Source: Seramator thermalis
GTDB lineage: Bacteria > Bacteroidota > Bacteroidia > Bacteroidales > Dysgonomonadaceae
DNA length: 64,000 bases
Direction: 5' to 3'
Assembly (NCBI RefSeq): GCF_004138125.1
Contig: NZ_RXHS01000002.1
Location: 186,001 to 250,000 of the forward strand
Shown here: positions 19,361 to 50,621 of the stretch, piece after piece
Position numbering within the stretch: the first letter of the stretch is position 1
Layout: each line of letters starts with the position of its first letter
Notes under the pieces: model-generated
Told to the model about the DNA's origin: nothing
The model's input: only the letters and a program-made list of their open reading frames with translations
Databases searched by the model: none
Made by a program: the position numbers and the translations under genes

Positions 19361-19498
19361 AGAAGTAAGAAATAAGAAATAAGAAATAAGAAATAAGAAA
19401 TAAGAAATAAGAAATAAGAAATAAGAAATAAGAAATAAGAAATAAGAAATAAGAAATAAGAAATAAGAAATAAGAAATAAGAAATAAGAAATAAGAAA
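19361..19498 (+). repeat. 7-bp minisatellite (AGAAATA), about 20 copies
   Basis: AGAAATA is repeated in tandem without interruption from 19368; the first unit at 19361 is AGAAGTA and the last is partial. The array covers 138 bp, begins three bases after the mraY stop and ends in the Shine-Dalgarno sequence AAAGGAG of the next gene. A pure 7-mer array is prone to slippage, and it could change spacing or transcription of the genes downstream. Confidence 0.97.
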
Positions 19499-23491: not shown

Positions 23492-23876
23492 CAATATCGA
23501 ATTACGTTATTGGTAAGATATATGCTGACTTCGTGATGGAAACGCTGAGGAATACGAACATTCGAAACTCTTAGGTGGCTTTGCAGACGCGCAAAGCCCC
23601 CGAACAGGGTTAAACAAGTACTTTGCAGACATGCAAAGCACCCGAACAGGGTTGAACAAGTACTTTGCAGACTTGCAAAGCACCCAAACAAGGTTAAACA
23701 AGTACTTTGCAGACGTGCAAAGCACCTGAACAGGGTTGATCGAATGCTTTACTGATCCGAAATGCATTTGGTTCACCTTAATAACCGATTTGGAGAAGCG
23801 ATGATCATTCTTTACGAAAAGAACTTGTATTTCAAATAATATAAATATATTTACTGAATATCACCAAATTACAATT
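23492..23876. other. Intergenic region holding 42-bp palindromic repeats
   Basis: A 385-bp gap between the outer-membrane protein gene and the DUF6261-like gene. Nearly half is the 42-bp repeat array at 23579-23746. The flanks (23492-23578 and 23770-23876) show no gene and no convincing promoter. Confidence 0.7.
23579..23746. repeat. Four tandem 42-bp repeats with internal palindrome
   Basis: Units start at 23579, 23621, 23663 and 23705, exactly 42 bp apart. Each begins CTTTGCAGAC, then two variable bases, then GCAAAG, giving a CTTTGC/GCAAAG inverted repeat. A conserved ACAGGGTT and ACAAGTA tail follows. The two loop bases differ in every copy (GC, AT, TT, GT). A decayed fifth unit follows at about 23747-23765. 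The palindrome with variable loop bases suggests selection on hairpin or dyad structure. Confidence 0.95.
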
Positions 23877-44474: not shown

Positions 44475-47400
44475 ATGATAATGAAACGTCTTTTGGCAGG
44501 TCTTTTCTGCCTCCTAACACTCTCTTTGAGTGCACAAAATCCGCTTTGGATGCGATATCCGTCAGTGTCTCCGGATGGTTCGCAAGTAGCTTTCGCTTAC
44601 AAGGGCGACATTTACAAAGTTTCGATTAATGGTGGAAAAGCTGCGCGCTTGACAGCTAACGATGCCTTCGACAGCTCTCCGGTTTGGTCGCCTGATGGCG
44701 AAAAAATAGCTTTTGTGAGCGATCGCGAAAATGGAGCGAAAGATATTTTCGTCATGTCGTCGGATGGAGGTCCTGCACAAAGACTCACCACAAATTCGGC
44801 TTCCGAAAATTTGTTTACCTTTACTCCCGACGGTAAATATGTCGTATTTTCGGCACACTATCAAGATCCGGCCAAGAGTGCCATGTTTCCCACGGCGCGA
44901 TTGACCGAATTATATAAAGTTTCGGTTGGAGGTGGCCGCCCTGAAATGATTGTTGCTTTTCCGGCAGACAAAATCAGTTTTCATCCATCCGGAAGAAAAT
45001 TCCTTTATCAGGATATTAAGGGATTCGAGAACACTTGGCGAAAACACCACACTTCGGCGGTTACGCGCGATATCCTTCAGTACGATATCAGTTCGGGCAG
45101 CATTCAAAAACTGATAGATTGGCAAGGCGAAGATACTGATCCTGTTTATGGAAGCGATGGCAACACGTTTTATTTCTTGAGCGAGCGCAGCGGAACATTC
45201 AATGTGTTTAGTTCGTCGGTGTCCACTCCTTCTGCCGTTAAACAACTTACTCATTTCAATAATCATCCTGTGCGATTCCTTTCGGTTTCCGACAACGGTA
45301 CACTTTGTTTTGGTTACGATGGCGAAATTTATAGGTTAACACCGGGTTCTGCCTCTCCGCAAAAGCTGCAGATCACCATCACGTCAGATGTCGACGAGCC
45401 TCCGCTCAAAAAACTCAGTTTTACGTCCGGAGCAACTTCGGCAGCTAATTCGCCGGATGGCAAGCAAATTGCTTTTACCGTCAGGGGCGATGTTTTTGTT
45501 ACTTCGGCCGATTATGCTACCACCAAACAAATTTCACAATCGATTGCTGAAGAGGCCGATGTAGATTTTGGCGCCGATAATCGTTCGTTGGTATATTCGA
45601 GTTATCGCGATGGTCGGTGGAATGTGTATATTGCCCGAATCGCCCGTAAGGAAGAGCCCAATTTTCCGAATGCGACGCTTATTGACGAACAACCGCTTAT
45701 CAAGAATGACGATTCGGAAAAGCAGCATCCCAAATTTTCTCCCGACGGAAAGGAAGTCGCTTTTGTTCAGGATCGTAAAAAGTTGATGGTATATAATCTC
45801 GAGTCGAAAAAAATTCGGCAAATCACCGACGGAACTTACCAGCAAGGAACCGACGGAAGTATAGATTACGAATGGTCGCCAGATGGCAAATGGTTTGTGA
45901 TGGAATATGTTTCCAACAATCATTCGCCTTACACCAATATTGGTATTGTGAGTGCACAATCGGGTGGCGATATTTTTGATCTCACTCACAGCGGTTATAC
46001 AAATCGAAATCCGCGATGGGTGATGGATGGTAACGCAATTCTTTTCAATTCGGAACAATACGGTATGCGTAATCATGCTTCTTGGGGTTCGATGGAAGAT
46101 GTGATGATCGCTTTTGTCAATCGCGAAGCGTATAATAAGTTCAAAATGAGTAAGGAAGAGTACGAGCTCTTTACGGATGCCGAAAAGGAAGCCAAAAAAG
46201 CTTCGGAAAAAGAGGATGAAAAAGATAATGATTCGAAAAAGGCCAATGAAAAGCCCAAAGATATTGTCATGGAGTTCGAAAACATGGATCAGCGCATCGA
46301 ACGTTTGACGCCTAATTCGTCGCGACTTGGCAGTGCCCTTATCAACAAGGATGCGACCAAACTTTATTACTTATCGGCTTTCGAAGACGATTATGATTTG
46401 TGGGTGCACGATTTGCGTGAGAAAACAACCAAACTGCTTTCAAAACTCAAAGGAGGTAATGCCTCGTTGAGTACCGATAAGGATCAAAAGATACTTTTTA
46501 TTTTGGGAAGCAAGAAAATGCAGAAAATGGATTTTTCGGGCGAAAAATTAACGCCGATTGATTATAAAGCCGAAATGAAACTCGATCTGGACAAAGAACG
46601 AGAATTTATGTTCAATTATGTACAACGCGAAGAAAAGGAAAGGTTTTATAATGTCAACATGCACGGCGTGGATTGGGATAATCTAACGGCACACTATCGC
46701 AAATTTTTGCCCCATATCAACAACAATTACGATTTTTCGGAAATGTTGTCCGAATTGTTGGGCGAGCTCAATGTGTCGCACACCGGATCGGGTTATCGTG
46801 CTCCCGGAAGTGAAGATAAAACGGCAAATCTGGGACTTTTTGTAAGCAGTGACAATAACCTGAAGGGCTTAAAAATAGACGAAATACTCATCAATGGTCC
46901 CTTCGATACCTTTCTCTCGAAAGCCAAACCGGGTGATATTATCGAAAAAATAGACGGTCAGGAAATTCTTCCTCAGCAGGATTACTACCCTATGCTCGAA
47001 GGAAAGACCGGGAAAAACACGCTGATCTCACTTTATTCGCCTGCCACCGGCGAACGTTGGGATGAAGTCGTCAAGCCTATTTCATCCGCAGTGCAGGACA
47101 ATCTGCTTTATGAACGCTGGGTGAAACAACGTGCCGACGAGGTGGATCGACTATCGAATGGCCGACTTGGATATGTGCATGTAGCCTCGATGGACGATGC
47201 AAGTTTCCGAAAAATTTATGCCGACGCGTTGGGCAAATATTATCAAAAAGAGGGCATCGTGATAGATATTCGTTACAACGGGGGAGGCCGATTGCACGAA
47301 GATTTGGAAGTATTTTTCAGTGGAAAGAAGTATCTTGATCAGGTGATACGCGATAAACAGTATTGCGAAATGCCCAGCCGCAGATGGAACAAGCCTTCTG

Positions 47401-47711
47401 TCATGCTCATCACCGAAGCCGATTATTCCAATGCTCACGGTACGCCCTGGGTATATAAACATCAAAATATCGGCAAACTGGTAGGCATGCCCGTCCCGGG
47501 AACCATGACTAGCGTAAATTGGGTAACACTGCAAGATCCGACACTTTATTTCGGTATTCCCGTTGTAGGTTATCGTACCGCACAAGGAACTTATCTCGAA
47601 AACAGTCAGCTCGAACCGGATGTCAAAGCGCCTCTCGATTTGAATAAGGTTGTCGGTGGCCAAGATACTCAACTTGAAGCCGCCGTTCGCGAATTACTGA
47701 AAGAGTTGTAG
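44475..47711 (+). CDS. Tricorn protease homologue (S41 family)
   Basis: Large secreted or periplasmic protease, 1078 residues, with a signal peptide (LLAGLFCLLTLSLSA). Residues about 25-330 and 330-680 form two beta-propellers of PD40 repeats (SPDGSQVAFAYKGDIY, SPDGEKIAFVSDREN, SPDGKEVAFVQDRKK). A lysine/glutamate-rich insert lies near 555-600 (EKEAKKASEKEDEKDNDSKK). A tricorn core follows, with a PDZ domain at about 770-860 and the S41 protease domain, where S985 in DYSNAHGTP is the probable nucleophile. The family degrades peptides passed through the propeller. The second ATG at 44481 is an alternative start. A strong terminator follows. Confidence 0.93.
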   Translation: MIMKRLLAGLFCLLTLSLSAQNPLWMRYPSVSPDGSQVAFAYKGDIYKVSINGGKAARLTANDAFDSSPVWSPDGEKIAFVSDRENGAKDIFVMSSDGGPAQRLTTNSASENLFTFTPDGKYVVFSAHYQDPAKSAMFPTARLTELYKVSVGGGRPEMIVAFPADKISFHPSGRKFLYQDIKGFENTWRKHHTSAVTRDILQYDISSGSIQKLIDWQGEDTDPVYGSDGNTFYFLSERSGTFNVFSSSVSTPSAVKQLTHFNNHPVRFLSVSDNGTLCFGYDGEIYRLTPGSASPQKLQITITSDVDEPPLKKLSFTSGATSAANSPDGKQIAFTVRGDVFVTSADYATTKQISQSIAEEADVDFGADNRSLVYSSYRDGRWNVYIARIARKEEPNFPNATLIDEQPLIKNDDSEKQHPKFSPDGKEVAFVQDRKKLMVYNLESKKIRQITDGTYQQGTDGSIDYEWSPDGKWFVMEYVSNNHSPYTNIGIVSAQSGGDIFDLTHSGYTNRNPRWVMDGNAILFNSEQYGMRNHASWGSMEDVMIAFVNREAYNKFKMSKEEYELFTDAEKEAKKASEKEDEKDNDSKKANEKPKDIVMEFENMDQRIERLTPNSSRLGSALINKDATKLYYLSAFEDDYDLWVHDLREKTTKLLSKLKGGNASLSTDKDQKILFILGSKKMQKMDFSGEKLTPIDYKAEMKLDLDKEREFMFNYVQREEKERFYNVNMHGVDWDNLTAHYRKFLPHINNNYDFSEMLSELLGELNVSHTGSGYRAPGSEDKTANLGLFVSSDNNLKGLKIDEILINGPFDTFLSKAKPGDIIEKIDGQEILPQQDYYPMLEGKTGKNTLISLYSPATGERWDEVVKPISSAVQDNLLYERWVKQRADEVDRLSNGRLGYVHVASMDDASFRKIYADALGKYYQKEGIVIDIRYNGGGRLHEDLEVFFSGKKYLDQVIRDKQYCEMPSRRWNKPSVMLITEADYSNAHGTPWVYKHQNIGKLVGMPVPGTMTSVNWVTLQDPTLYFGIPVVGYRTAQGTYLENSQLEPDVKAPLDLNKVVGGQDTQLEAAVRELLKEL

Positions 47712-47730
47712 CTCGATCTGATAATAAAAA

Positions 47731-47770
47731 AAGTCCCTGCCAAATTTACAATCGGCAGGGGTTTTTATTT
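47731..47770 (+). terminator. Rho-independent terminator after the tricorn gene
   Basis: Stem CCCTGCC (47736-47742) with GGCAGGG (47755-47761), then TTTTTATTTT. A run of A precedes it, so it can act on both strands and would also stop minus-strand transcripts leaving the GIY-YIG array. Confidence 0.88.
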
Positions 47771-47841
47771 TGATATTTATGAAACTAAACATTTGGATAA
47801 AACTACAGCTGTATCGGAGTGCTCTGAACGATCTGTTTCAA

Positions 47842-48084
47842 CTATTTTTCAATCAGTTGTTCGATGTAAATTCTGCTTTTTCGAGATTTGATGTATTGTT
47901 CCGCACTGTAAGCTTGGGAACGAGTTTGATATTCTTTCAAATAGACAAGATTCCACGGAATACCGGGTTTTGTATATGTGCTTCTACCGCTGTTGTGACG
48001 CTTCAATCGATCTTCCGGATTTCCGGTAGAACCCACGTAATATCTGTCCAATTTATTGGAATATAAAATATAAACGAAATACAT
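47842..48084 (-). CDS. GIY-YIG nuclease-domain protein, copy 1
   Basis: Small protein of 80 residues made of a single GIY-YIG nuclease fold of the UPF0213 type. Key parts: YFVYILYSN and RYYVGST (the GIY...YIG strands), the arginine/histidine helix DRLKRHN near 27-33 and the glutamate in YSAEQYIKSRK near 61. The ATG at 48084 is the start; an in-frame TTG nine codons earlier lies inside the tRNA terminator. An extra T near the 3' end changes the last residues to IEK instead of IENS or IENG. Such genes often sit next to tRNA or rRNA genes in Bacteroidota; whether they cut DNA or act in repair is unknown. Confidence 0.88.
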   Translation of the reverse strand: MYFVYILYSNKLDRYYVGSTGNPEDRLKRHNSGRSTYTKPGIPWNLVYLKEYQTRSQAYSAEQYIKSRKSRIYIEQLIEK

Positions 48085-48094
48085 GTGATGTTTT

Positions 48095-48129
48095 AAAATA
48101 AAAAAGGCCAAACACTTTACAGCGCTTGG
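48095..48129 (-). terminator. Terminator, unit 1
   Basis: Nine-bp stem with G-T pairs (48121-48129 and 48108-48116), GTAA loop and a T-rich tail on the minus strand. It is a copy of the terminator that follows tRNA-Val. Confidence 0.75.
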
Positions 48130-48141
48130 TCTTCATTTTGT

Positions 48142-48224
48142 GGGCGTTAACGGATGGAGGGACGACATTCCGAGAATCGGAATTCGAACCGCCGCCTCCT
48201 CCGATGTATCGGAGTGCTCTGAAC
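48142..48224 (-). pseudogene. Degenerate tRNA-Val-like sequence, copy 1
   Basis: Read on the plus strand, this begins like the 3' end of the real tRNA gene (GGGCGTTAACGGA against GGGCGTTGACGGA), has an insert of about 27 bases in the T-arm that is itself a hairpin (ATTCCGA GAA TCGGAAT), then resumes with TTCGAACCGCC and ends GTGCTCTGAAC like the D-arm side. The anticodon arm is replaced by CTCCGATGTATCGGAG. The acceptor and D-arm 5' half is lost. It cannot give a functional tRNA. Confidence 0.65.
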
Positions 48225-48232
48225 GATCTGTT

Positions 48233-48478
48233 TCAACTATTTTCAATCAGTTGTTCGATGTAAATTCTGCTTTTTCGAGATTTGATGTATTGTTCCGCAC
48301 TGTAAGCTTGGGAACGAGTTTGATATTCTTTCAAATAAACAAGATTCCACGGAATACCCGGTTTCGTATATGTGCTTCTACCGCTGTTGTGACGCTTCAA
48401 TCGATCTTCCAGATTTCCGGTAGAACCTACGTAATATCTGTCCAATTTATTGGAATATAAAATATAAACGAAATACAT
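48233..48478 (-). CDS. GIY-YIG nuclease-domain protein, copy 2
   Basis: The middle copy, 81 residues, starting at the ATG 48478. It differs from copy 1 by GNLED in place of GNPED and by its C-terminus (LIENS). The catalytic-type residues (the two tyrosine strands, the arginine helix and the glutamate in AEQYIK) are all kept, so selection may still act on it. It lies 394 bp from each neighbour copy and behind its own copy of the tRNA terminator; expression would depend on read-through or on an unseen promoter. Confidence 0.88.
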   Translation of the reverse strand: MYFVYILYSNKLDRYYVGSTGNLEDRLKRHNSGRSTYTKPGIPWNLVYLKEYQTRSQAYSAEQYIKSRKSRIYIEQLIENS

Positions 48479-48488
48479 GTGATGTTTT

Positions 48489-48523
48489 AAAATAAAAAAG
48501 GCCAAACACTTTACAGCGCTTGG
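48489..48523 (-). terminator. Terminator, unit 2
   Basis: Same 9-bp stem and tail as in the other units (arms 48515-48523 and 48502-48510). Confidence 0.75.
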
Positions 48524-48535
48524 TCTTCATTTTGT

Positions 48536-48618
48536 GGGCGTTGACGGATGGAGGAACGACATTCCGAGAATCGGAATTCGAATCGCCGTCCCCTCCGATG
48601 TATCGGAGTGCTCTGAAC
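48536..48618 (-). pseudogene. Degenerate tRNA-Val-like sequence, copy 2
   Basis: Second copy of the tRNA-derived piece, with GGGCGTTGACGGA identical to the real gene's 3' end, the same T-arm hairpin insert and TTCGAATCGCC in place of TTCGAACCGCC. It separates GIY-YIG copies 2 and 3. Confidence 0.65.
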
Positions 48619-48626
48619 GATCTGTT

Positions 48627-48872
48627 TTAACCATTTTCGATCAGTTGTTCGATGTAAATTCGGCTTTTTCGAGATTTGATGTATTGTTCCGCACTGTAAG
48701 CTTGGGAACGAGTTTGATATTCTTTCAAATAGACAAGATTCCACAGAATACCGGGTTTTGTATATGTGCTTCTACCGCTGTTGTGACGCTTCAATCGATC
48801 TTCCGGATTTCCGGTAGAACCCACGTAATACTTGTCCAATTTATTGGAATATAAAATATAAACGAAATACAT
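48627..48872 (-). CDS. GIY-YIG nuclease-domain protein, copy 3 (next to tRNA-Val)
   Basis: Copy nearest to the intact tRNA gene, 81 residues, ATG at 48872. It differs from copy 1 at KLDKYY (for KLDRYY) and GILWN (for GIPWN) and ends in LIENG. All domain hallmarks are present. It begins 10 bases past the tRNA-Val terminator tail. As it is the only copy joined to an intact tRNA gene, it is probably closest to the original arrangement. Confidence 0.88.
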   Translation of the reverse strand: MYFVYILYSNKLDKYYVGSTGNPEDRLKRHNSGRSTYTKPGILWNLVYLKEYQTRSQAYSAEQYIKSRKSRIYIEQLIENG

Positions 48873-48882
48873 GTGATGTTTT

Positions 48883-48917
48883 AAAATAAAAAAGGCCAAA
48901 CACTTTACAGCGCTTGG
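48883..48917 (-). terminator. tRNA-Val terminator
   Basis: Nine-bp stem (48909-48917 with 48896-48904, two G-T pairs), GTAA tetraloop and CCTTTTTTATTTT tail on the minus strand, 13 bases after the tRNA 3' end. Confidence 0.8.
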
Positions 48918-48929
48918 TCTTCATTTTGT

Positions 48930-49003
48930 GGGCGTTGACGGATTCGAACCGCCGACCCTCTGCTTGTAAGGCAGATGCTCTGAACCAGCTGAGCTAAACG
49001 CCC
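48930..49003 (-). tRNA. tRNA-Val (anticodon UAC)
   Basis: A full 74-base cloverleaf on the minus strand. The acceptor arms GGGCGTT and AACGCCC pair perfectly; the D-arm is GCTC...GAGC; the anticodon stem TCTGC/GCAGA encloses the loop CTTACAA with anticodon TAC; the T-arm GGCGG TTCGAAT CCGTC is standard apart from one G-T pair. CCA is not encoded. It has a full-consensus promoter at 49061-49092 and a terminator downstream. Confidence 0.97.
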
Positions 49004-49007
49004 GATT

Positions 49008-49148
49008 TATCTTTGCCTTTTGTTGCCCTCGCTTGGAGCATATTTTCCGGAAAAGCGATGCAAAGATAAGAGGTTTTTTTTTTCGATGCAAAAAAAATCA
49101 AATATTTTTCGTAAAATTTTTCAGAGACTATATTTATGATTAATTTTG
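49008..49148 (+). promoter_or_regulatory. Candidate purB promoters (TATCTTTG and TAATTTTG)
   Basis: Two plus-strand TAnnTTTG matches, TATCTTTG at 49008-49015 and TAATTTTG at 49141-49148, could drive purB (ATG at 49278). Neither has a good -33 box. The first forms a 10-bp perfect inverted repeat with the tRNA -7 element. Confidence 0.35.
49061..49092 (-). promoter_or_regulatory. tRNA-Val promoter (TTTG / TATCTTTG)
   Basis: On the minus strand TTTG (49092-49089) and TATCTTTG (49068-49061) are 20 bases apart, a full match to the Bacteroidota consensus, about 58 bases before the tRNA 5' end. Confidence 0.6.
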
Positions 49149-49277
49149 TGGTTTGAAAAATGACTTGTATCGAACAGATTAACACGATTGAAGTAAAGTC
49201 ATTCGAAATCGTTTACTATGTGAAGAATTTTTTTGGAAAATCGATTTTCTTCTTATCGTTTAATGTGCTTTTTTTAG

Positions 49278-50621
49278 ATGAAACTTAACGAACTGAACGC
49301 TATATCTCCCATCGACGGCCGTTACAGAGAAAAAACCGACGAACTGTCGTCCTTTTTCTCTGAATTTGCGTTGATCAAATATCGGGTAATGGTAGAAGTG
49401 AAATACTTTATCGCCCTATACGAATTGAACCTGCCTCCATTGCAAGGGATGAACGAAGGAGATAAGACCCGATTGCACGAAATCATCGATAACTTCGACG
49501 AAAAAGATGCCCGGCGCATCAAGGATATCGAAAAGACGACCAATCACGACGTGAAAGCGGTAGAATATTTTCTGAAAGAAAAATTCGATACGTTGGGACT
49601 CTCTGCTTACAAGGAATTTATCCATTTTGGGCTCACTTCGCAGGATATCAACAATACGGCTTTCCCGATGATGTGGCGCGACGCACTTCAACAGGTTTAT
49701 ATTCCGCAACTCGAGGCTTTGGCTCAATTGCTCGAAAAATATGCCGAAGAGTGGAAAGATATTCCGATGCTGGCTCATACGCACGGACAGCCTGCATCAC
49801 CCACCCGCTTGGGAAAGGAAATCGAGGTTTTTGCCTACCGCCTGCGAAATCAGATAGAGCCATTGAAGCACATTCCGGCAAAGGGAAAATTTGGAGGAGC
49901 AACGGGCAATTTTAATGCACATCACGTAGCTTATCCCGCTATCGACTGGGCAGCGTTTGCAAACAAATTTCTGGCCGAAAAACTGGATTTGAGTCGTGAA
50001 GCTTTTACCACACAAATATCCAACTACGATGCATTGTCCGCTTCGTGCGATGCTCTCAAGCGCATCAACACTATTCTTATCGACTTGTGTCGGGATATGT
50101 GGCAATACATTTCGATGGAATATTTCAAACAAAAAATCAAGGAAGGCGAAGTCGGTTCTTCGGCGATGCCTCACAAAGTGAATCCCATCGATTTTGAAAA
50201 TGCCGAAGGCAATCTGGGAATGGCGAATGCCATGCTCGAACATCTGGCTGCCAAATTACCGGTGTCGCGCCTGCAACGCGACCTGACCGATTCAACCGTT
50301 ATTCGCAATATTGGTATGCCTCTGGCTTATGGATTAATTGCGCTAAAAAGCACAACAAAAGGGCTCAATAAATTGTTATTAAACAGGGAAGCTATCGATC
50401 GCGACCTCGAAAACAATTGGGCGGTTGTTGCCGAAGGCATTCAAACGATTTTGCGGAGAGAAGGCTATCCCAAACCCTATGAAGCTTTGAAAGAACTGAC
50501 GCGTACAAATCAACATGTTACCAAAGAGAGCATTTCGCAATTTATCGATACATTGAATGTTTCGGAAGATATTAAAAATGAATTGAAAGCTATTACGCCA
50601 CAGAACTATACAGGAATTTAA
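49278..50621 (+). CDS. purB: Adenylosuccinate lyase
   Basis: Acts twice in purine synthesis, releasing fumarate from SAICAR and from adenylosuccinate; 447 residues, of the E. coli PurB type. The N-terminus ELNAISPIDGRYREK is the subfamily start; TTNHDVKAVEYFLKE near 87-101, HFGLTSQDINNTA near 116-128, HTHGQPASPTRLGKE near 168-182 and the fumarase/aspartase signature SSAMPHKVNPIDFENAEGN near 294-312 contain the catalytic histidine and serine. The gene stands alone, divergent from tRNA-Val. Confidence 0.97.
   Translation: MKLNELNAISPIDGRYREKTDELSSFFSEFALIKYRVMVEVKYFIALYELNLPPLQGMNEGDKTRLHEIIDNFDEKDARRIKDIEKTTNHDVKAVEYFLKEKFDTLGLSAYKEFIHFGLTSQDINNTAFPMMWRDALQQVYIPQLEALAQLLEKYAEEWKDIPMLAHTHGQPASPTRLGKEIEVFAYRLRNQIEPLKHIPAKGKFGGATGNFNAHHVAYPAIDWAAFANKFLAEKLDLSREAFTTQISNYDALSASCDALKRINTILIDLCRDMWQYISMEYFKQKIKEGEVGSSAMPHKVNPIDFENAEGNLGMANAMLEHLAAKLPVSRLQRDLTDSTVIRNIGMPLAYGLIALKSTTKGLNKLLLNREAIDRDLENNWAVVAEGIQTILRREGYPKPYEALKELTRTNQHVTKESISQFIDTLNVSEDIKNELKAITPQNYTGI

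What the first reader, a model, noticed from the sequence alone, without database searches (positions are those of the whole stretch)
47811..49003. tRNA-Val gene followed by a tandem array of three GIY-YIG nuclease genes
Seen directly: three nearly identical units with a period of 394 bp, each containing a GIY-YIG gene behind a copy of the tRNA terminator, with the intact tRNA-Val(UAC) gene at the head. Known: GIY-YIG domains occur in homing endonucleases and repair nucleases, and single UPF0213-like genes lie next to tRNA genes in Bacteroidota. Inference: the nuclease or its target site may promote repeated duplication at the tRNA 3' end, a minimal tRNA-associated selfish or self-amplifying unit.
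Basis: partly seen in the sequence, partly recalled or inferred. Interest (0 to 1): 0.72.

Follow-up and report, generated by a model that had tools for sequence, protein, structure and literature searches.

The report
tRNA-linked tandem GIY-YIG nuclease units
A gene for a small DNA-cutting enzyme is repeated three times behind a tRNA gene, each repeat ending in a tRNA copy spoiled by hairpins, and the same arrangement recurs beside many kinds of tRNA genes in related bacteria, which points to a widespread and apparently undescribed family of selfish tRNA-resident DNA units.

Summary
On the minus strand a tRNA-Val(UAC) gene heads three 394-bp units, each with a GIY-YIG ORF; the copies differ, so assembly duplication is unlikely.

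It is general. A nuclease profile hits 136 of 392 same-order genomes. Of 116 best-scoring loci read, 86 have a tRNA beside the ORF and 29 have two or more domain hits in a row. Pseudo-tRNA arms of several isotypes share one stem, YYCCG...CGGRR. Nucleases follow the tRNA isotype, not the genome (36 of 39). At the purB-tRNA-Val locus unit number is 0 to 3.

Best reading: a tRNA-isotype-specific homing-type nuclease that lives beside tRNA genes and multiplies by recombination between tRNA copies, as phage SegB does. Cutting is not shown. A sister clade lies between inverted repeats, partly inside protein genes (about 280 bp), and one genome holds ORF-less palindromes with matching ends; a GIY-YIG-driven palindromic mobile element is not excluded.

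The parts
48928..49003 (-). intact tRNA-Val(UAC) gene at the head of the array
   Evidence: ARAGORN; Rfam RF00005 72.8 bits
48896..48917 (-). terminator-like hairpin, copy 1 (after the intact tRNA, before ORF 1)
48627..48899 (-). GIY-YIG ORF 1 (likely ATG at 48872)
   Evidence: invariant Tyr, Arg, Glu
48534..48618 (-). pseudo-tRNA-Val 1: D-arm remnant GTTCAGAGC, hairpin in place of the anticodon arm, T-loop insert with palindrome, tRNA 3' end
   Evidence: alignment; sequence
48593..48608 (-). hairpin CTCCGATACATCGGAG replacing the anticodon arm
48561..48577 (-). palindrome ATTCCGATTCTCGGAAT inserted in the T-loop
48502..48523 (-). terminator-like hairpin, copy 2
48233..48505 (-). GIY-YIG ORF 2 (likely ATG at 48478)
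48140..48224 (-). pseudo-tRNA-Val 2, same anatomy
48199..48214 (-). hairpin CTCCGATACATCGGAG of pseudo-tRNA 2
48167..48183 (-). T-loop palindrome of pseudo-tRNA 2
48108..48129 (-). terminator-like hairpin, copy 3
47842..48111 (-). GIY-YIG ORF 3 (likely ATG at 48084)
47810..47829 (-). truncated third pseudo-tRNA, broken off inside the hairpin; distal end of the array

Best explanation
The array is one member of a family of tRNA-resident selfish units in Bacteroidota (with scattered relatives in other phyla). Each unit is a minimal GIY-YIG endonuclease ORF joined to a partial copy of its own host tRNA gene. SHOWN: the anatomy, its recurrence beside 20 upstream anticodon labels, locus-level presence/absence and copy-number variation, isotype-loyal nuclease lineages, purifying selection, and pseudo-tRNA copies whose anticodon arm and/or T-loop is replaced by a palindrome. 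INFERRED: the protein works as a free-standing homing-type endonuclease whose target lies in or at one tRNA isotype gene; the break is repaired from a unit-bearing copy or between tRNA copies, so the unit settles next to that tRNA, leaves an intact tRNA for the host, and expands into tandem arrays. The palindromes in the extra tRNA copies would make them non-decoding and no longer a target, or mark them as the nuclease's hairpin substrate; which of the two is open.
For: An ARAGORN-called tRNA with a readable anticodon lies beside the ORF on the same strand in 86 of 116 loci (9 more are cut by a contig end, 21 have none); over whole loci tRNA calls of any kind are 120 same-strand versus 3 opposite-strand. 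A partial copy of the upstream tRNA lies downstream of the last ORF in 40 of 69 testable loci, scoring at least 18 and above all 25 sampled mismatched-tRNA controls, and 0 of 69 loci reach 18 with shuffled DNA. The nearest other nuclease shares the isotype in 58 of 84 loci (label shuffles mean 13.4, max 28) and the genome in 0 of 84; in 17 genomes with two or more isotypes, 36 of 39 rows with a partner are closer to a same-isotype nuclease elsewhere than to another-isotype copy at home, 1 more row had no partner. Tree: 46 label changes ('none' counted as a label) versus 89.4 in shuffles, 0 of 200 as low. Only 42 of 410 same-anticodon pairs from different genomes share a flanking gene (18 of 3213 different-anticodon pairs), so conserved neighbourhood alone does not obviously explain this. 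At the same purB-tRNA-Val locus the nuclease of G021 is 44-47% identical to those of G000 and G009 (same family) but 65% to one from another family. dN/dS is 0.05-0.12 in the 4 of 6 close pairs where it could be computed. Precedent: phage T6 SegB, a GIY-YIG nuclease next to tRNA-Tyr, is needed for tandem amplification of a tRNA-segB unit (PMC13096335: abstract, passages and section 10 seen).
Against: No cleavage data. The ORFs hold only the catalytic domain, without the separate DNA-binding part usual in homing endonucleases (recalled). The intact tRNA-Val of G000 equals that of its unit-free congener G001, so why it is not cut is unexplained. ORF-less units and pseudo-tRNAs exist, and 5 of 7 pseudo-tRNA genomes without a hit have no GIY-YIG hit at E<=1e-3, so tandem growth may not need the nuclease in place. 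The common YYCCG...CGGRR stem across isotypes is not predicted by isotype-specific homing. The window protein has no phage or plasmid relative at E<=1e-5, so no vehicle for transfer is seen. Val(tac) same-family pairs are on average more similar (0.62, 10 pairs) than other pairs (0.49, 266 pairs), which also fits vertical descent with loss. The tree rests on 78 columns and 59 of 132 inner branches are open. In three of the four dN/dS pairs dS exceeds 1, and two of them share a row.
Confidence: 0.5

Rival explanations
1. REP-like model: the GIY-YIG protein is a hairpin- or cruciform-specific nuclease that moves short CCCG...CGGG palindromes; pseudo-tRNA arms, T-loop inserts, dispersed palindromes and inverted-repeat-flanked GIY-YIG elements are forms of one palindromic mobile element, and the tRNA gene is favoured because it is itself a set of hairpins.
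For: 46 of 74 distinct pseudo-arms close with 5 or more Watson-Crick pairs (shuffle 0.12) and 48 of 74 have a CCG...CGG core (0.68); 45 of the 46 are YYCCG...CGGRR, over several isotypes, with differing pairs at several stem positions (the 46 were chosen for pairing). 21 of 29 distinct T-loop inserts hold a palindrome with arms of 6 or more (2.7 expected). A nuclease clade of 9 rows (98% SH-aLRT) mostly lies between inverted repeats, several inside protein genes, and one genome carries six ORF-less palindromes with the outer ends of its element. Palindrome counts are higher in GIY-rich genomes; within-family pairs 25 higher, 11 lower, 4 ties, sign test p 0.029.
Against: In tRNA-type loci the ORF is not bracketed by an inverted repeat (2 of 85 score 11 or more). 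Palindrome-rich genomes without a nuclease hit exist, e.g. G188 with 60 and G386 with 40 (G188 also has 36 of the reversed control). The solo palindromes were found in 1 of 20 genomes searched.
Confidence: 0.22
2. Passive growth: any duplication at a tRNA 3' end grows and shrinks by unequal crossing-over between tRNA and terminator repeats; the nuclease is a passenger or housekeeping UPF0213 protein, and palindromes land in non-functional tRNA copies by an unrelated process.
For: Tandem pseudo-tRNA units without an ORF inside, with periods of 114 (L209) and 121-122 bp (L215), and 79-bp arrays upstream of a tRNA-Lys (L214). The seven pseudo-tRNA-bearing genomes without a nuclease hit are also rich in palindromes (2 to 60, against a median of 3 in 33 others).
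Against: Isotype loyalty of nuclease lineages, same-strand tRNA placement in 86 of 116 loci, co-occurrence of the pseudo-arm motif and the nuclease (35 of 42 motif genomes are GIY-positive against 136 of 392 overall, Fisher p 8.9e-12), and purifying selection.
Confidence: 0.18
3. RNA-level model: the pseudo-tRNAs are transcribed hairpin RNAs that act as decoy, processing signal or RNA antitoxin for a GIY-YIG nuclease, in the manner of type III toxin-antitoxin or tRNA decoy systems.
For: tRNA-like repeats and a terminator-like hairpin lie ahead of each nuclease ORF; paired stems are kept with differing bases.
Against: The two window pseudo-tRNAs do not fold clearly better than shuffles (z -0.87 and -1.63; intact tRNA -2.54) and the predicted fold is no cloverleaf; the enzyme family is recalled to act on DNA. 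No transcript data were available.
Confidence: 0.08

Closest known systems
Phage T4/T6 SegB (free-standing GIY-YIG homing endonuclease beside tRNA genes)
   Same: GIY-YIG nuclease next to tRNA genes of many isotypes; tandem amplification of a tRNA plus nuclease unit, with microhomology between nuclease 3' end and tRNA 5' end (PMC13096335, passages and section 10; T4 table in PMC2988022, passages).
   Different: Here bacterial chromosomes, ORFs with the catalytic domain alone, arrays in many families, and the repeated tRNA copies are pseudo-tRNAs with hairpins while the intact tRNA stands at the head.
UPF0213 GIY-YIG proteins (PDB 1zg2, 1ywl)
   Same: Closest solved relatives by sequence (E 2.8e-14 and 3.6e-12); similar size, matched over most of the domain.
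   Different: I know of no tRNA linkage or tandem array described for them; my one search on this listed a single paper, which I did not read.
REP sequences, REPINs and RAYT
   Same: Dispersed short palindromes with a nuclease partner; solo palindromes sharing ends with a nuclease-bearing element (here in one genome).
   Different: RAYT is a Y1 HUH enzyme (recalled; PMC3116915 seen only in a listing); here GIY-YIG. The link rests on ends and co-occurrence.
tRNA-targeting integrative elements (tyrosine-integrase islands; recalled)
   Same: A tRNA 3' part is duplicated at the far end and an intact tRNA remains.
   Different: No integrase lies between the repeats; units of about 300-430 bp; the duplicate copies start in the D-arm and carry hairpins.

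Membership tests
GIY-YIG endonuclease superfamily | GIY-YIG catalytic domain with conserved Tyr, Arg and Glu | tested here: met
   PF01541 above cut-off for all three ORFs; invariant Y14, Y25, G27, R35, E71 in 13 relatives; residue roles recalled
UPF0213-like group | sequence similarity over most of the small domain | tested here: met
   1zg2 and 1ywl are the best PDB hits of the family profile, positions 2-77 and 2-73 of 80
free-standing homing endonuclease (SegB-like) | patchy presence at one conserved locus | tested here: met
   purB-tRNA-Val locus occupied in G000, G009, G021, G038; tRNA near purB without a unit seen in 13 others, of which 3 have a contig end within about 175 bp
free-standing homing endonuclease (SegB-like) | target specificity reflected in lineage | tested here: met
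   isotype loyalty, (indirect; vertical descent not excluded)
free-standing homing endonuclease (SegB-like) | extra DNA-binding domain | tested here: not met
   89-90 aa ORFs, only GIY-YIG and T5orf172 (overlapping) matched
free-standing homing endonuclease (SegB-like) | sequence-specific DNA cleavage and biased inheritance | not testable with these tools
   needs purified protein and crosses
SegB-type tandem amplification | repeat unit contains the intact tRNA | tested here: not met
   in the window, units carry pseudo-tRNA; the intact tRNA is only at the head
group I intron endonuclease | intron RNA around the ORF | tested here: not met
   no intron family up to E 1 in window 47000-50000 nor up to E 0.1 in eight inverted-repeat loci; TIGR01453 far below cut-off
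REP/RAYT | HUH Y1 transposase | tested here: not met
   no such domain in the ORFs

The most novel reading that the evidence does not exclude
GIY-YIG proteins power a so-far unnamed class of minimal palindromic mobile elements in Bacteroidota: an autonomous form of about 280 bp (inverted repeats plus one GIY-YIG ORF) that enters protein genes, ORF-less solo palindromes, and a tRNA-adapted form in which tRNA arms serve as the hairpins and units grow in tandem beside one loyal tRNA isotype. As far as I recall and searched, this would be the first bacterial transposable-element class with a GIY-YIG enzyme as sole nuclease, and among the smallest autonomous elements.
Probability: 0.3. Interest if true: 0.92.

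Novelty: new variant of a known kind. Interest (0 to 1): 0.76.

Why it matters
It links a bacterial chromosomal nuclease family to tRNA genes in a way that my searches found only for phage SegB, gives a natural record of nuclease-linked tandem amplification with isotype-specific lineages, and offers a testable answer to what short UPF0213-like genes beside Bacteroidota tRNA genes do. It also shows a source of false tRNA calls (several pseudo-tRNAs are called as tRNAs, e.g. in L006, L050, L168). If the palindrome link holds, it opens a new class of mobile element.

Tried and rejected
Assembly artefact: rejected because units differ and arrays occur elsewhere, also in a single-contig genome. Phage or plasmid origin: the window protein has no relative there at E<=1e-5. 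Intron-borne ORF: no Rfam intron match. RNA fold of window pseudo-tRNAs: not clearly better than shuffles. Recent transposition between tRNA genes within a genome: rejected as the main route, since 36 of 39 rows are closer to other genomes. A strong palindrome-nuclease link from unmatched genomes that I chose for many or no nuclease hits (24 against 13 same-order genomes) shrank when paired within families (25 higher, 11 lower, 4 ties; first-listed positive and negative of each family; two pairs left out because of the 80-handle limit). Dropping the seven families whose GIY-negative member bears pseudo-tRNA arms gives 23 to 6, but that choice was made after seeing the data. Solo palindromes with the inverted-repeat ends: 1 of 20 genomes. 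Of the 46 good pseudo-arms two come from ARAGORN-misnamed pseudo-tRNAs used as parent (Cys in L168, Arg-TCT in L084). The pseudo-arm search pattern does not match the window's own genome (its arm is followed by GGGGAC or GGAGGC). Structure prediction was not run.

Literature: nine searches listed no paper whose title or abstract start describes this arrangement; one search showed 10 of 35 papers. Of the listed papers I read only passages and one section of PMC13096335 and passages of PMC2988022. The library lacks most subscription journals.

Sampling limits: the 116 loci are best-scoring listed matches, not a random sample. Fourteen listed places, all near a contig end, were not fetched, overlapping loci were merged, and one search's list was itself capped. 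A tRNA counts as beside the ORF if its end lies within 600 bp upstream or its start within 300 bp downstream. Among the 29 loci with two or more domain hits, L055 is one broken ORF, and several second copies are fragments. One search left out loci without a readable tRNA, L084 (misnamed) and L055 (broken). The 65 extra 3' copies exclude ARAGORN tRNAs by design, so that call does not show that no intact copy exists (L050, L055 and L128 have several).
Full report
1. The observation. The window holds three tandem units with period 394 on the minus strand, headed by a tRNA-Val(UAC) gene at 49003..48928. Each unit has a terminator-like hairpin and a GIY-YIG ORF of 89-90 codons from a TTG, with a likelier inner ATG (PF01541). 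The neighbours are adenylosuccinate lyase (purB) on the tRNA side and, on the other, a gene for a protein with weak TolB-propeller and tail-protease likeness, below those models' cut-offs. A protein search of the window's genome found no further copy except a distant GIY-YIG on contig C5.

2. Alignment of the units shows that each internal junction is a damaged copy of the tRNA: it starts in the D-arm (GTTCAGAGCA), has the 16-nt hairpin CTCCGATACATCGGAG in place of the anticodon arm, keeps part of the T-arm, carries a 28-nt insert with the palindrome ATTCCGATTCTCGGAAT in the T-loop, and ends with the tRNA 3' end. At up to three mismatches both palindromes occur in the window only here. The array ends inside a third hairpin.

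3. How general it is. A profile of 13 relatives has hits at E<=1e-15 in 136 of 392 same-order genomes. I read 116 loci (best-scoring matches, not a random sample). A tRNA with a readable anticodon lies beside the ORF on the same strand in 86 (69 upstream only, 14 downstream only, 3 both); 9 are cut by contig ends; 21 have none; counting every tRNA call in the loci, 120 are same-strand and 3 opposite. Upstream tRNAs carry 20 anticodon labels, of which Cys(aca) in L084 is probably a misnamed pseudo-tRNA. The median gap from tRNA end to domain start is 47.5 bp. 29 of 116 loci have two or more domain hits in a row (one of them, L055, is a broken single ORF); 33 of 40 spacings are 294-436 bp. Of 18 named loci (Paludibacter, Christiangramia, Flavobacterium, a Desulfobacterales, an Ignavibacteriales and others) 14 have a same-strand tRNA call in the locus.

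4. The pseudo-tRNA signature. Downstream partial copies match the neighbouring tRNA rather than other tRNAs in 40 of 69 loci (the window's own locus fails this test because its last pseudo-tRNA is truncated). I found 105 pseudo anticodon arms in 51 loci; 74 are distinct by isotype and sequence; 46 close with at least five Watson-Crick pairs (0.12 expected from shuffles), 48 have a CCG...CGG core (0.68 expected). Among the 46, 45 are YYCCG...CGGRR; pair 4 is C-G and pair 5 G-C in all 46; pairs 1, 2, 3, 6 and 7 differ between arms on both sides (these arms were chosen for pairing, so the changes are compensatory by selection). Of 77 extra tRNA 3' copies in 54 loci, 34 have a T-loop insert, 28 an intact T-loop and 15 no recognisable T-stem; 21 of 29 distinct inserts hold a palindrome (2.7 expected). 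The search pattern for such arms occurs in 42 of 392 genomes, its reversed control in 0; 35 of the 42 have the nuclease (Fisher p 8.9e-12). Of the other seven, two have weak or partial nuclease hits and five have none at E<=1e-3. Units without an ORF, and arrays of tRNA 5' parts upstream of the tRNA, also occur.

5. Variation at one locus. The tRNA-Val lies beside purB in many genomes of the family. It carries 3 units in the window's genome, 1 in G009, 1 in G021 and 2 in G038 (another family). In 13 further genomes the tRNA was found near purB with no unit seen there; in three of these (G001, the congener; G016; G020) the contig ends within about 175 bp of the tRNA, G004's tRNA is turned round, and G016 has an array on another contig (L009) whose far flank resembles the sequence after this tRNA, so G016 is unclear. 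In the rest of the loci no tRNA-Val was found near purB.

6. Lineages follow the tRNA. In a tree of 144 domains the labels need 46 changes against 89.4 in shuffles, 0 of 200 as low; only 78 columns, 59 of 132 inner branches open. The nearest other nuclease shares the isotype in 58 of 84 loci and never the genome; in genomes with several isotypes 36 of 39 rows are closest to same-isotype nucleases elsewhere. Only 42 of 410 same-anticodon pairs share a flanking gene. Tandem copies are 83-100% identical in 20 of 21 loci with usable copies (the exception, L074, has unlike neighbours at 43%). dN/dS is 0.05-0.12 in the 4 of 6 close pairs where it could be computed, with dS above 1 in three of them; adjacent tandem copies differ by 162 synonymous and 111 nonsynonymous changes in all.

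7. The sister clade. Nine rows without tRNA form a clade with 98% SH-aLRT. Inverted repeats scoring 11 or more flank 6 of 29 loci without tRNA and 2 of 85 with. In the clade L125, L085, L111, L021, L101 and L107 score 11 or more; L089 scores 9 (best shuffle 8), L122 9 (equal to its best shuffle), and L093 shows none. Ends are such as TTTACCCCGTTAGATA...TATCTAACGGGGTAAA and lengths 274-330 bp. Several sit inside protein genes: a tyrosine recombinase (L125), a 23S_rRNA_IVP protein (L122; halves match profile 1-46, below the cut-off, and 49-105 of 106), a protein whose HATPase_c_4 domain starts right after the insert (L085), and a protein with a Bro-N-like first half (L089; second half no family). 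In G300 six ORF-less palindromes share the outer 11 nt of the L125 left end; four of the six have its right end with the same mismatch, two have another base there; 0 in 19 other genomes searched. No long ORF crosses them.

8. Dispersed palindromes. TCCCGA(N2-8)TCGGGA numbers 2-80 in 24 GIY-rich genomes (mean 26) and 0-5 in 13 GIY-free same-order genomes; the reversed pattern gives 0-7 and 0-12 in the same sets, another palindrome 0-4. Paired within 40 families the effect is weaker: 25 higher, 11 lower, 4 ties, p 0.029. GIY-negative genomes with pseudo-tRNA arms are palindrome-rich too. This is association, not mechanism.

9. Interpretation. The nearest working analogue is phage SegB: a GIY-YIG nuclease beside tRNAs, needed for tandem growth of a tRNA-nuclease unit by recombination, and co-located with tRNAs of many isotypes in phages (PMC13096335). 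The present units share the arrangement and probably the logic, but differ in replicon, protein architecture and the hairpin pseudo-tRNAs. I put homing-type, tRNA-isotype-specific self-propagation first (0.5), the hairpin/REP-like model second (0.22), passive growth third (0.18), an RNA-level role last (0.08). Cleavage, target and cause of the palindromes are untested.

Noticed in passing
L125, L085, L111, L021, L101, L107, L089, L122 (elements at coordinates): GIY-YIG ORFs bracketed by inverted repeats (274-330 bp; weak in L089 and L122), several inside protein genes; by eye L085 and L111 sit at the same site of related genes.
   Followed up: partly
G300 contigs C23, C39, C58, C146, C276, C462 (L233-L238): Six solo palindromes CCCCGTTGGATA...TATCC(T/C)ACGGGG with the outer ends of the GIY-YIG element of L125.
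   Followed up: partly
L195, L196, L201: Some dispersed TCCCGA...TCGGGA palindromes seem to lie inside the loops of other hairpins (seen by eye, not tested).
   Followed up: no
L080, L090, L096, L131: Arg(acg) loci are mirror-image: a pseudo-tRNA 5' part with a D-loop palindrome (CCTGCCTGCC...GGCAGGCAGG type) lies upstream of the GIY-YIG ORF and the intact tRNA downstream.
   Followed up: partly
L050, L055: Three tRNA-Val genes in a row ahead of the GIY-YIG ORFs.
   Followed up: no
window 19361-19498 and 23579-23737: Two other tandem repeats: 7-bp unit about 20 times, and 42-bp unit about 4 times.
   Followed up: no
L139 (G001), after the tRNA-Val: The congener's tRNA-Val is followed by different sequence that resembled a group II intron end (recalled likeness, not tested) near a contig end.
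   Followed up: no
L101:1018-1175 (-): RT-7 RNA match (83 bits, below the gathering score) near an inverted-repeat GIY-YIG element.
   Followed up: no
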